A DNA stretch of 64,000 nucleotides from Verrucomicrobiales bacterium (GTDB lineage Bacteria; Verrucomicrobiota; Verrucomicrobiia; Verrucomicrobiales; DEV007), in NCBI GenBank assembly GCA_016795505.1, contig JAEUHH010000074.1:1-64000 (forward strand), written 5' to 3'. Position numbers and translations under genes: made by a program. Positions 37,133 to 41,569 of this stretch are shown in pieces. Each line of letters starts with the position of its first letter. Within the stretch, counting starts at the first letter, position 1. The notes beneath the pieces are model-generated. The model saw nothing but the letters and a program-made list of their open reading frames with translations, searched no databases and was not told where the DNA came from.

Positions 37133-38887
37133 ATGCAAAAGACGGCCCACTTCCGCGTCGATCCGAAACTCGCCCACGTCCTCGGCGAGAACTACACATC
37201 GAGCGAGAAGGCGCTCAAGGAACTAATCGACAATGCCTGGGATGCGGAAGCCACAGAGGTGCATGTCACCGTTCCGAACATCCTCACCGACGCCCCCATC
37301 ATCGTGCAGGACAACGGCAGCGGAATGAAGACCGCCGAGGTCGAAGCCGAATACCTCAACATCGCCAGCCCACGCTTCAGCCGCAAAGGCGACCGCACAC
37401 CTAACCTCAACCGCACTGTTAAAGGCCGGAAAGGCATCGGCAAATTCGCCGGACTCATCCTCGCAAGCGAGATGGAACTCGTAACCCGAGCCGCTGGAAA
37501 GCGCACCAGTGTCCTCATATCTAAGACCGTACTGATGGGTGCTATCGGCGATCTCGAAAAGGTGCCCCTCCCTCTCGATGTCTCTGATTCCGATCCACTG
37601 GACGCCAAGGGTACAACCATTTCCCTGCGGAACCTCAATCCCAAGCTCTCCCACATTCAGCCCGACAAGCTCAAGGAACTCCTCGCCCTCGATTACGGCC
37701 GCGAGCGATCTTTCGTGATCTTCGTCAATGGCGAGCGCGTCTTCCACCACGACATTCAAGGCGAGAAGTTTCAGACCGAGATCACACTTCCCAACGGCCA
37801 GACCGCCAGCGTCTCCTACACCATCGCCGACAAACCCCTGCCAGGCAAAAAATCAGGACTCAACGTCCGTGTCGGCGGCAAGAGCATCGGCAAGCCCCAC
37901 CTCTTCGGACTCGAAACCGACGACGCCCTCTCCGACCGACTACGCCGCCGCATCGTCGGAGAAATCAACCTCCCTGCAGACTCCCTCGAACTCACCGCCG
38001 CTGGAGGCGATGTCATCGAGAGCGACAAAGGCTTCGAGATGCTCATGCAGGCCATGCCCGCCGAGCTAAAGCAGAATCTCGAAGCCACCCACACGAACGA
38101 GTTCAACCTCGCTAAAGCACGCCTAAGCAAGCAGACGAAACAGCGGCTGGAAAGCGTGCCCGAGCACCGCCGCACCATCGCCGAGGAGCGAATCACCCGC
38201 CTAATGCAGCGGTCCTTTCAGGAAGGCGAAAAACTGGAGCGCATTGAAGCCCTTGTCGCTCTCGTGCTCGATGCTTTGGAGATCGATGAATACTGGACCG
38301 TCTGCCAGCACGTCCATGACGCCGAAAAAGTCGACGTCTTCCACTTCGCTACCGCCCTCGAAGAATTCGGACTCTGCGACCTCGCCTTCATGGGCACCCA
38401 AGCCAAGCGCCGCTTGGAGTTTCTTGATGGATTAGACCGCCTCGCCGCCGACCCTAAAACAAGTGAGGCTCAAATGCACAAAGCACTTGCTACAAACCTT
38501 TGGGTCTTCGGCCCCGAATACAGCCTCATGGCCAGCAACCGCCAACTTCGCACCATCATCGAAGACTACACCGGCCCCGACGCCACCGACCGCCCCGACC
38601 TCTTCCTCGCAGGCAACGTCCTCAGGCAACACCTACTCGTCGAGTTCAAGAAACCCACGGTAACTGTCGGACGTGACGCCGAAGCCCAAGCCAAAAAGTA
38701 TGCAGACACCCTCTCGGGCAAACTTGGAATGTCCCTTGAAATCCTCATCATCGGCGGAGAGGTTGACGCCAAGCTCGTTGACGAATACACCGGCAAGAAA
38801 ACTAAATTCACCAGCTACCGAGCCGTCATCGCCAGTGCGAAGACTCAGTTGGAATGGCTTATTGCGGAACTCATTACGAAAGACTGA
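37133..38887 (+). CDS. GHKL (MORC-like) ATPase fused to a restriction-type nuclease domain
   Basis: A 584-aa protein. The N-terminal GHKL ATPase has E30-x2-D33-N34-x2-D37 (motif I), D60-N-G-S-G-M (motif II) and G98-R-K-G-I-G-K-F (motif III). A helical middle region follows. The C-terminus contains a plausible PD-(D/E)xK nuclease signature: D489 in DRPDLFLAG, then E504-F-K506 in LLVEFKKPT, with a later AEAQAKKYAD. The combination suggests a nucleic-acid-acting defence-type protein resembling prokaryotic MORC and Shedu (DUF4263) architectures. It stands alone, 121 bp after the SNF2 gene. Base composition is lower in GC than neighbouring genes. The nuclease call is motif-based only. Confidence 0.7.
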   Translation: MQKTAHFRVDPKLAHVLGENYTSSEKALKELIDNAWDAEATEVHVTVPNILTDAPIIVQDNGSGMKTAEVEAEYLNIASPRFSRKGDRTPNLNRTVKGRKGIGKFAGLILASEMELVTRAAGKRTSVLISKTVLMGAIGDLEKVPLPLDVSDSDPLDAKGTTISLRNLNPKLSHIQPDKLKELLALDYGRERSFVIFVNGERVFHHDIQGEKFQTEITLPNGQTASVSYTIADKPLPGKKSGLNVRVGGKSIGKPHLFGLETDDALSDRLRRRIVGEINLPADSLELTAAGGDVIESDKGFEMLMQAMPAELKQNLEATHTNEFNLAKARLSKQTKQRLESVPEHRRTIAEERITRLMQRSFQEGEKLERIEALVALVLDALEIDEYWTVCQHVHDAEKVDVFHFATALEEFGLCDLAFMGTQAKRRLEFLDGLDRLAADPKTSEAQMHKALATNLWVFGPEYSLMASNRQLRTIIEDYTGPDATDRPDLFLAGNVLRQHLLVEFKKPTVTVGRDAEAQAKKYADTLSGKLGMSLEILIIGGEVDAKLVDEYTGKKTKFTSYRAVIASAKTQLEWLIAELITKD

Positions 38888-39015: not shown

Positions 39016-40827
39016 ATGACCGCAATCGAACCAACACTCGCGCTTCGTCTTGAAGAAATTGAAAAACGGCTTGGCTCCTATCGAACCCAGTGCTGGCGGT
39101 CTGCATGGGTGGTCACAGCAGTATTCTTGATCGTCCTTGCGCTGATTATTGCAGGAGCGCTCTTCTTCATACCTGCCTCAATGATCGCAACAGCACAGTC
39201 TCAACTACAGCCGCTGGCAGCCACAGCCCAGACGACTTCGAACGCGACAGTCGGAGGAGAGGGAGATTTTATCAAAGTGGTCATTCCGTTGCTTGCAGTC
39301 GCTTTCGGCTTTGCCGTTGGCTTTCTGGGTCTAAAGCGACTTGAACAATTTGACTCTGAGATCAATGGGCTGCGTTCATCATTGCAGAATCAACTGCTGG
39401 AGGAAAGACGTCTAGCTGCAACAGATCGTGACAGGCTCGTAAAGACAACCGAAGATCGTTTTGCCGATGCACGAAGGAGTCAGTCGGAGGCGCTGGAACG
39501 AATCGAGAAACGTCAATCTGAGCTGAAGTTGGAAATGGAAAGAGCAGCGGCACAGTCTCTGAATGAAATTAAGGAAGAACGTAGCAGTGCAAAGATTGAC
39601 CGGAACTCCATCCGTCAAGAAATGCTCGATGAGCTTACTAGAAAAGCGGAGGAGGTTGCCTCCAGCGCCCGGTCATCTGTTGGTCAACTTGTCGGTAATG
39701 AGCTCGAACCGTTGCTCAGTGAGGCGTCCAAAGATGTGGAAAAAAAGACAGAGGCTGCAAACTTGCTGCTGCAGGAGATAAATCTGAAACTGCAACAGTT
39801 TGGCTGGTTGAAGCAGCACGTTGGGAGTCTTGATTCATTCGTGGCTATCACCTCAGCAGGCGTTGCTCACAAAAAAGCATTGGAGCTATTTCAGGCCAAA
39901 CAGATTGATGCTGCCGTCAAACTTGCCAAGTTAGTTATCGAGAGCAAATGCGGCGGATCGGAAGCAGACTTTCATAATCTCGGTTTGGAGTTTGCAAGGA
40001 ATGACTATCACGATCACGCGACGGAGATTGTTAAGGTCGGACTGTTATTCTTCCCTTCCAACATCGATCTCATCGCCGATGGCATTAAATACGCCACCTG
40101 CAGTGGACAAATGAATATTGCCGAAGAGCTAGCTCAAGAGCTGCTTTCAATCGATAGCGTAAAATGGAATTGGCGATCCTATGTTTTTCTCGCTGATTAT
40201 TATAAAGCGCGGGGGGATGATGAGAAATCCCTAGAGGTTTATGAGCAATTTCGTTCCAGTTCGCTATCAACTTCTGATGAGCGAGGCTACTCCGAATCAG
40301 TTGAGTTTTTTGAGAGGCTCGGTGACCTTGCCAAAGCTGAGCAATTTGCGTTGGAGGGATTGCAAAAGTGTGTTCAGGCCCCCCAATGCGCATTCCATCT
40401 GGCTAAACTGAAATTGGAACAAGGAAAGTGCACAGATGCCGTGCGCTTTGCATCCATTGCATTGAGCCAGAACATTGCTGATCAACCAACAGTCAACATG
40501 TCGTCAATCATCTGGTATCGTGGAGCTGCGCGAGTTAAGTATTGCCTTCAATTGGCTTCTATGGAAGTCATTGATGTTCCCAGACTGGAACGAGAAGCTA
40601 TTTTGGCAGCCAAAGACCTTAGCCTCAGTGTAGCAATGCCTCGAATAGTCAGGCAACATGAACAAGAAGCCGCAGTTCAGATGCAATTACTCCGCCAAGC
40701 ATTGGCACAGGTCGGCTCAGATCAAGTTGGCAACCCTATATTTCAAGATCTGAAGGATAAGCAAGCTGCCTTGATGACAGCGATAGCTCAAATGATGAAA
40801 GCGCGCGAGCAGGCGTCGGAGGAATAG
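39016..40827 (+). CDS. Membrane-anchored coiled-coil/TPR-like protein
   Basis: A 603-aa protein. Two membrane helices lie at about residues 28-52 and 88-110 with a periplasmic loop between. A long coiled coil covers about 115-260 (many Glu/Arg heptads). A helical-repeat, TPR-like region runs from about 280 to 520, with NLGLEFARNDY and ADYYKARGDDEKSLEVY repeats. I know no function. It has noticeably lower GC and more A-rich codons than the flanking genes, suggesting recent acquisition. It lies 128 bp downstream of the GHKL-nuclease gene in the same orientation, a possible partner. Confidence 0.65.
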   Translation: MTAIEPTLALRLEEIEKRLGSYRTQCWRSAWVVTAVFLIVLALIIAGALFFIPASMIATAQSQLQPLAATAQTTSNATVGGEGDFIKVVIPLLAVAFGFAVGFLGLKRLEQFDSEINGLRSSLQNQLLEERRLAATDRDRLVKTTEDRFADARRSQSEALERIEKRQSELKLEMERAAAQSLNEIKEERSSAKIDRNSIRQEMLDELTRKAEEVASSARSSVGQLVGNELEPLLSEASKDVEKKTEAANLLLQEINLKLQQFGWLKQHVGSLDSFVAITSAGVAHKKALELFQAKQIDAAVKLAKLVIESKCGGSEADFHNLGLEFARNDYHDHATEIVKVGLLFFPSNIDLIADGIKYATCSGQMNIAEELAQELLSIDSVKWNWRSYVFLADYYKARGDDEKSLEVYEQFRSSSLSTSDERGYSESVEFFERLGDLAKAEQFALEGLQKCVQAPQCAFHLAKLKLEQGKCTDAVRFASIALSQNIADQPTVNMSSIIWYRGAARVKYCLQLASMEVIDVPRLEREAILAAKDLSLSVAMPRIVRQHEQEAAVQMQLLRQALAQVGSDQVGNPIFQDLKDKQAALMTAIAQMMKAREQASEE

Positions 40828-40845
40828 CCGCACCCATTTTCGGGC

Positions 40846-41452
40846 AATGATTATTCTCAGCGACACCACCAAAGTCGAGTCTGACGAGATCTCGGCGATG
40901 GGCGGTGACGGAGATGGGTTCGGCGGGGTAGCTGAGGGTGGCGACGATGCGCTCTTCCTCGGGGGTGAAGCGGGCGAGGAGGTCGCCGAAGATGAACTCG
41001 AGGGGATTGTTGCCCTGCGGGCAACTGCGGAGGTGGGCGAGGGCGTCGGCGATGGTGGTGCAGTAGCCGCTGCCGACCTGCCAGGCGGTCCAGGTGAGGA
41101 GCAGGGTGTTGCCGCCGGTCTCAGAGATGAGACGGAGGCGGTCGGGCTCGGGGGCGGCGTCGAGGGCGGGGTTTTGTCGTGGGCGATGCCGGCGAGGGTC
41201 TGGAGGGCGGCGGTTTGGTCGAACTGCTGGAGTTTGAGCCGTCTGCCGGTGGCGATGACGAGGGGGCGGCTGGTGAGGAGGGCTTTGCAGGTGCGCGGGA
41301 GGTGGCCGAGGAAGGCGAAGAGGCTGCGCTGGTCGGCGTCGTTGGCGATCTGATTGGCGGACAGGACAACGATCTCGTCGCAGAAGACGGGGAAGGCAGA
41401 GGAATGGGTGGCAGGGGCATGGCTGAATCCCTTTCCGGCATTCCATTGCCAA
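40846..41452 (-). pseudogene. Frameshifted remnant of a STAND/NB-ARC NTPase
   Basis: Two overlapping minus-strand frames together read as one protein. The first carries IVVLSANQIANDADQRSLFAFLGH and KALLTSRPLVIATGRRLKL, resembling the Walker B to sensor-1 stretch of STAND NTPases. The second continues as RLISETGGNTLLLTWTAWQ, LEFIFGDLLARFTPEEERIV and ATLSYPAEPISV, the winged-helix part. The frame changes near 41170. The P-loop part upstream and any effector are missing, so this is a truncated, frameshifted relic. Long Ser/Pro-rich stretches in the shadow frames are artefacts. Confidence 0.6.
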
Positions 41453-41569
41453 CCATTCCCTTGCCTTCTTTCGCTAATCACTCATTTTAAGATGCTTATG
41501 AGCCTTGTGCGTAGAGTTCAAAACCAAACGACACCGTCCTTTTGCTGAATTGGCAGCCCCTTGAGTCTG

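What the first reader, a model, noticed from the sequence alone, without database searches (positions are those of the whole stretch)
37133..38887. Lone GHKL ATPase fused to a candidate nuclease, a possible defence gene
MORC-like ATPase motifs at the N-terminus and D489...E504-x-K506 at the C-terminus, with a lower-GC region and a neighbouring STAND remnant, fit a single-gene anti-phage protein. Prokaryotic MORC and Shedu-type nucleases are known separately; this exact fusion might be an undescribed or little-studied variant.
Basis: partly seen in the sequence, partly recalled or inferred. Interest (0 to 1): 0.7.

Follow-up and report, generated by a model that had tools for sequence, protein, structure and literature searches.

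The report
Lone GHKL-Shedu nuclease (paraMORC3) defence gene
This is an intact single-gene bacterial protein joining an ATP-driven clamp to a DNA-cutting domain, very probably an anti-phage defence gene; the same fusion was described in 2008 and shown to stop phages in Vibrio cholerae in 2025, so it is a further member of a known kind.

Summary
Window 37133-38887 (+) is an intact 584-aa ORF with an N-terminal GHKL ATPase, an S5-like transducer, a helical middle and a C-terminal PD-(D/E)xK nuclease. The catalytic residues (E30, D60, K250; E445, D489, E504-x-K506) are invariant among relatives down to 39% identity. The C-terminus folds as the Shedu nuclease (8ti9, VIA Z 12), and all 10 clade members hit Pfam SduA_C. 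The ATPase module is closest to MORC3/MORC4, but the MORC-specific S5 motif is absent. The fusion is not undescribed: it is paraMORC3 (Iyer 2008), placed in Shedu type I-D, and the Vibrio cholerae example VcSduA is phage-protective, needing both ATPase and nuclease (Adams 2025). Full-length profile alignment links it to BbrUII/HgiDII-type restriction enzymes. Its own branch differs from those: no cytosine methyltransferase nearby, shorter, mostly Verrucomicrobiota, often beside unrelated restriction or defence genes. In this genome it is a lone accessory gene behind a vertically conserved SNF2 gene; same-genus genomes lack it there. The 'STAND remnant' was not confirmed. Most likely it is an ATP-gated DNA clamp whose Shedu domain cuts phage DNA. 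New member of a known kind; interest modest.

The parts
37133..38887 (+). Lone GHKL-Shedu (paraMORC3-type) gene, 584 aa
   Evidence: intact ORF; full-length homologues; full-length profile match to phage paraMORC3
37133..37642 (+). GHKL ATPase domain, about residues 1-170
   Evidence: Pfam HATPase_c_3 E 9.2e-24 at 23-130; PDB Hsp90/MORC/MutL matches
37220..37243 (+). N-box E30..D33 N34..D37 (E30 predicted general base for ATP hydrolysis)
   Evidence: invariant in A1 and A2
37310..37327 (+). G1 box D60-N-G-S-G-M65
   Evidence: D60, G62, G64, M65 invariant
37421..37453 (+). G2 box / ATP lid, residues 97-107 KGRKGIGKFAG
   Evidence: most positions invariant
37643..38002 (+). S5-like transducer domain, about residues 171-290, with invariant K250 as candidate ATP-contacting lysine
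   Evidence: structural matches to MORC3/MORC4/Hsp90 middle region
38027..38452 (+). long helical middle segment, residues 299-440
   Evidence: predicted secondary structure
38459..38884 (+). Shedu-type PD-(D/E)xK nuclease domain, residues 443-584
   Evidence: SduA_C in 10/10 clade members, best 2.3e-6; PDB SduA 8ti8 by profile E 0.0048; VIA Z 12.1-12.3 to 8ti9
38465..38467 (+). E445, first acidic residue of E-D-ExK
   Evidence: invariant
38597..38599 (+). D489 of the RPD motif
   Evidence: invariant
38642..38650 (+). E504-F-K506 catalytic motif
   Evidence: invariant

Best explanation
A single-gene anti-phage nuclease of the paraMORC3 / Shedu type I-D kind. The N-terminal GHKL-S5 module very probably dimerises on ATP binding, like MutL, Hsp90 and MORC, to make a clamp that closes around DNA. 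The clamp state, driven by ATP binding and hydrolysis, positions and licenses the paired C-terminal Shedu PD-(D/E)xK domains to cut invading DNA. Shown here: the architecture, the intact invariant active sites, the fold assignment of the nuclease, accessory (gained) status in this genome, and restriction/defence neighbours of relatives. Shown elsewhere for a homologue: phage protection that needs both the ATPase and the nuclease. Inferred: dimer clamp, DNA as substrate, and how self DNA is spared (no dedicated methyltransferase travels with it, so recognition is more likely of a structure, DNA end or phage process than of an unmethylated sequence).
For: Intact ORF; GHKL Pfam E 9e-24; invariant ATPase and nuclease residues across 39-90% identity relatives; SduA_C hit in 10/10 members and a PADLOC SduA model in 7/10; PDB SduA by sequence profile; structure comparison with Shedu at the top, Z 12.3 and 12.1, ahead of the best non-Shedu nuclease at 10.3 and 9.6, and MORC3/MORC4 for the ATPase-S5 part; full-length hhalign to paraMORC3, E 3.5e-25. 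Relatives sit beside type I R-M, Eco57I-class methylase + AIPR, XhoI R-M, ABC-3C + TIR, Hachiman-like HamA/helicase + Mrr; eight proteins flanking SNF2 orthologues, as a small control, show none. Same-genus genomes have the sulfatase-SNF2 locus without it. VcSduA: E27A and K557A both abolish protection (PMC12137116).
Against: No phage or biochemical test of this protein. The window itself holds no recognised defence gene beside it. The GHKL part of the predicted model is of low confidence (pLDDT 24-40 for residues 1-110), so dimerisation was not modelled. The single-sequence SduA_C score is below Pfam's cut-off (14.4 against 27); Foldseek alone did not list Shedu in its top 50 for the nuclease fragment. 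The neighbour survey is not a formal enrichment test.
Confidence: 0.8

Rival explanations
1. It is an orphan sequence-specific restriction endonuclease of the BbrUII/HgiDII type: it recognises a fixed DNA site, and protection of the host comes from an unlinked methyltransferase or one belonging to a neighbouring R-M system.
For: NCBIfam NF050001 BbrUII/HgiDII restriction enzyme matches at E 2.1e-40; PADLOC REase_II models match the GHKL part of all 10 members; full-length homology. Several clade members sit next to adenine methyltransferases or whole R-M systems: L023 D12, L025 HsdM/S, L029 and L032 XhoI system.
Against: NF050001 score 139 is far below its cut-off of 550. No cytosine methyltransferase lies near any of the window-clade loci or in the 82-kb contig, while all nine proteins labelled cytosine-methyltransferase-linked, outside this clade, have one adjacent; each group is a single supported branch. 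The neighbouring methyltransferases are of different types and in the XhoI cases come with their own endonuclease, so none is a constant partner.
Confidence: 0.13
2. A housekeeping DNA-repair or chromosome-structure factor of the MutL/MORC kind (possibly working with the upstream SNF2 helicase) rather than defence.
For: GHKL-S5 plus nuclease resembles MutL logic; a SNF2 gene lies 121 bp upstream on the same strand, and Iyer 2008 reports MORC-SNF2 operons.
Against: SNF2 relatives are present in all 38 genomes searched and the orthologue keeps its sulfatase neighbour without the GHKL gene in the same genus. The GHKL gene is patchy (only the own genome and G045 among 289 phylum genomes hold a close full-length copy), GC-deviant, on plasmids elsewhere and beside defence genes elsewhere.
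Confidence: 0.05

Closest known systems
VcSduA, Shedu with GHKL N-terminal domain (type I-D), Vibrio cholerae VSP-II WASA (PMC12137116)
   Same: one gene, N-terminal GHKL ATPase, C-terminal DUF4263 PD-(D/E)xK nuclease, acts on its own
   Different: distance between N-box glutamate and catalytic lysine 476 here against 530 (E27 to K557) in VcSduA; its sequence was not in hand, so identity was not measured
paraMORC3 family (Iyer, Abhiman and Aravind 2008, PMC2292703), including its standalone subset
   Same: GHKL + S5 + RE-fold nuclease with E-D-ExK; sporadic distribution; some members standalone
   Different: nothing essential; this is a compact, mainly Verrucomicrobial branch
BbrUII/HgiDII family restriction enzymes (NCBIfam NF050001), e.g. 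paraMORC3 of phage PhiR44_1
   Same: full-length profile alignment, E 3.5e-25, both catalytic sites align
   Different: that branch has an adjacent cytosine methyltransferase and is about 60-90 aa longer; the window clade forms a separate supported branch without one
Shedu SduA of Bacillus cereus and E. coli (8ti8/8ti9, 8ps4/8ps5)
   Same: nuclease domain fold, Z 10.4-12.3
   Different: their N-terminal regulatory domains are not GHKL ATPases (own knowledge and PMC12904381)
Eukaryotic and prokaryotic MORC ATPases
   Same: GHKL-S5 module arrangement (MORC3/MORC4 Z 11)
   Different: MORC-specific S5 motif not met; no Shedu nuclease fused in them

Membership tests
paraMORC3 | N-terminal GHKL domain with the ATP-binding motifs | tested here: met
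   HATPase_c_3 E 9.2e-24; N, G1, G2 boxes invariant
paraMORC3 | S5-fold domain after GHKL | tested here: met
   strand-rich region 190-290 with invariant G242, K250; structural match to MORC3/MORC4/Hsp90 middle region
paraMORC3 | C-terminal RE-fold domain with E-D-ExK | tested here: met
   E445, D489, E504-x-K506 invariant; Shedu/BspD6I/EndoMS-like fold
Shedu (DUF4263/SduA_C nuclease) | SduA_C-family nuclease domain | tested here: met
   10/10 clade members match PF14082 at E<=0.1, best 2.3e-6; 8ti8 by profile E 0.0048; top structural match. Window protein alone is below the Pfam cut-off
Shedu type I-D (VcSduA-like) | enzymatic GHKL N-terminal domain fused to the Shedu nuclease | tested here: met
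   definition from PMC12137116
Shedu type I-D (VcSduA-like) | phage protection dependent on ATPase and nuclease residues | not testable with these tools
   needs phage plaque assays
BbrUII/HgiDII restriction enzyme | score above the curated cut-off of NF050001 | tested here: not met
   138.9 bits against 550; the phage PhiR44_1 protein scores 751
BbrUII/HgiDII restriction enzyme | adjacent cytosine methyltransferase | tested here: not met
   none near the window-clade loci nor in 82 kb of the own contig
MORC proper | GhXhhpXXRhl motif in the S5 domain | tested here: not met
   aligned stretch is G242-LNVRVGG-K250-SI; charged R246 at a hydrophobic position and K in place of R (motif)

The most novel reading that the evidence does not exclude
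The compact, methyltransferase-free branch (constant 476-480 residue spacing, mostly Verrucomicrobiota) is a functionally distinct GHKL-Shedu subtype with its own trigger, for example sensing DNA ends or phage replication structures through the ATP clamp, and it works as an add-on layer beside varying R-M systems.
Probability: 0.2. Interest if true: 0.45.

Novelty: new member of a known kind. Interest (0 to 1): 0.25.

Why it matters
It extends GHKL-gated Shedu nucleases into Verrucomicrobiota and separates, on one tree, a branch tied to cytosine methyltransferases from a branch that is not. That contrast makes a simple question testable: whether the same ATP-clamp nuclease can switch from methylation-based to structure-based recognition of self.

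Tried and rejected
Operon with the upstream SNF2 helicase: rejected, the SNF2 orthologue is kept in the same genus without this gene. TPR protein 39016-40827 as partner: not found near any relative of the GHKL gene and with essentially no relatives in 241 phylum genomes. STAND remnant: no profile support. Relatives in viral contigs: none confirmed. Foldseek alone on the nuclease fragment gave only weak matches (EndoMS, Rpb5, FokI; E above 0.001) with no Shedu row in the top 50, but the realignment of its candidates put Shedu first. The full-length model had poor confidence in the ATPase domain, with only 12 rows in its alignment. The VcSduA sequence itself was not found among the records looked at. 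The two primary Shedu papers of 2025 (the type I-D reclassification and the DNA-end-sensing study) did not turn up in the library as full text; they are taken from PMC12137116 and PMC12904381.

Full report
Check of the observation. The ORF at 37133-38887 (+) is intact, 584 aa. Pfam finds HATPase_c_3 at residues 23-130 (E 9.2e-24) and only a weak SduA_C hit at 443-511 (E 0.044, below cut-off); PADLOC finds GHKL-type REase_II models at the N-terminus and SduA at 418-473 (E 5.8e-6). The gene's GC is 57.7% (GC3 0.715) against GC3 of about 0.82 in the upstream SNF2 and sulfatase genes; the next gene downstream, a coiled-coil/TPR protein, is lower still (48.6%).

Relatives and conserved residues. 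A scan of genome contigs gave 15 relatives, mostly MAGs of Verrucomicrobiota at 60-90% identity over the full length, with Planctomycetota (49%), Chromatiaceae and Chlorobiaceae (39%). Plasmid searches added Azospirillum, Rhizobium, Agrobacterium, Sinorhizobium and Caballeronia at 41-44%, and one phylum genome, G045, at 44%. In the alignments E30, D33, N34, D37, D60, G62, G64, G98, R99, G101, G103, K104, K250 and, in the C-terminus, E445, H449, W457, S468, N469, R487-P488-D489, E504-F505-K506, Q519 and Y523 are invariant.

What the C-terminus is. Scanned one by one, 10 of 10 clade members match SduA_C (best 2.3e-6), and 7 of 10 match a PADLOC SduA model. A profile of the C-terminal domain finds B. 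cereus SduA (8ti8) in the PDB at E 0.0048. An AlphaFold2 model from 12 sequences is fairly confident for the C-terminal part but not for residues 1-110. Re-alignment against PDB chains puts the Shedu nuclease domain first (8ti9, Z 12.3, 2.6 A over 140 residues; E. coli SduA Z 11), with MORC3/MORC4 (Z about 11) for the ATPase-S5 part. The C-terminal fragment folded alone (pLDDT 76.6, pTM 0.71) repeats this: 8ti9 Z 12.1, other Shedu chains Z 10.4-10.6, then EndoMS and BspD6I at 9.0-9.6. Foldseek on its own was weak and did not list Shedu in the top 50.

Which known family. Iyer and colleagues (2008, PMC2292703) defined paraMORC3 as GHKL + S5 + a C-terminal RE-fold nuclease with E-D-ExK, and noted a standalone subset. 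Adams and colleagues (2025, PMC12137116) showed that VcSduA, a GHKL ATPase fused to the Shedu nuclease DUF4263, protects against phages, that E27A and K557A abolish protection, and that such proteins were earlier called paraMORC3 and are now placed in Shedu type I-D. The window protein meets each sequence-testable criterion of both. It lacks the MORC-specific S5 motif, so it is not filed as MORC proper. NCBIfam's closest model is the BbrUII/HgiDII restriction enzyme family (E 2.1e-40, but 139 bits against a cut-off of 550), and hhalign aligns the clade over 539 columns to the paraMORC3 of phage PhiR44_1, which lies next to a Dcm gene.

Two branches. In a maximum-likelihood tree of 28 proteins the 15 window-clade proteins form one side of a branch (100/99) and the nine proteins labelled cytosine-methyltransferase-linked one side of another (100/99). 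Eight of those nine have an annotated cytosine methyltransferase beside them, and the ninth, G013, has one found by tblastn. The same tblastn finds none in the loci of the window clade or in 82 kb of the own contig. The window clade also has a constant 476-480 residue distance between the N-box glutamate and the catalytic lysine, against 530 in VcSduA (from E27 and K557 in the paper) and 499-535 in the other proteins where it could be read.

Context. In the own genome the gene is single-copy. SNF2 relatives are present in all 38 genomes searched. In three same-genus genomes the sulfatase-SNF2 pair is kept; in two of them the sequence beyond SNF2 is available and holds no GHKL gene, in the third (L049) the contig ends inside SNF2. 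So this is an accessory gain, not part of a conserved SNF2 operon. Relatives lie next to a D12 adenine methyltransferase (L023), HsdM/HsdS and an AAA protein (L025), Eco57I-class methylase and AIPR (L026), a type I HsdR fragment (L028), an Eco57I-class methylase + XhoI pair (L029; L032 likewise by sequence resemblance), ABC-3C components and TIR proteins (L031), and HamA, a DEAD helicase and Mrr (L043); rhizobial plasmid copies L038 and L039 share a divergent DEAD/ResIII helicase. Eight proteins flanking SNF2 orthologues showed no defence genes. This is suggestive, not a formal enrichment test: neighbours were picked by eye and the control is small. Other loci (L022, L024, L030, L033, L034, L040) showed no clear defence neighbour in what was scanned or read.

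Mechanism. By analogy with MutL, Hsp90 and MORC, ATP binding should bring two GHKL domains together and close a clamp; the VcSduA study models an entwined dimer with a cavity. E. coli SduA, with a different N-terminal clamp, binds DNA ends and nicks at a fixed distance (PMC12904381). The likely scheme is an ATP-gated DNA clamp that licenses the Shedu nuclease. Only the anatomy, conservation, fold, accessory status and context are shown here; dimerisation, substrate and trigger are inferred.

Verdict. What is mildly new is the compact, methyltransferase-free branch and its reach into Verrucomicrobiota.

Noticed in passing
window 39016-40827 (+): 603-aa protein with an N-terminal hydrophobic segment, coiled coil and TPR-like repeats, GC 48.6% against about 65% for the window; only one weak match in 241 phylum genomes, so a probably foreign gene of unknown role.
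   Followed up: partly
window 40717-41481 (-): Two overlapping frames carry short stretches that look by eye like STAND/NB-ARC pieces (LLTSR; GGNTLLL), but no profile in Pfam or PADLOC supports it.
   Followed up: partly
L038:4019-6547 (-), L039:3997-6525 (-): On Agrobacterium and Sinorhizobium plasmids the GHKL-Shedu gene is divergent to a DEAD/ResIII helicase gene of equal length, a possible partner in that sub-branch.
   Followed up: no
L031:10001-11038: Copy lacking residues about 97-309 (ATP lid and S5 region) but open in frame, inside an ABC-3C/TIR defence cluster.
   Followed up: no
L042:4911-6845: A third branch of GHKL proteins of similar length (pTi plasmid, G064, G248) lies apart from both clades in the tree, next to a HepT-like gene on the Ti plasmid.
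   Followed up: no
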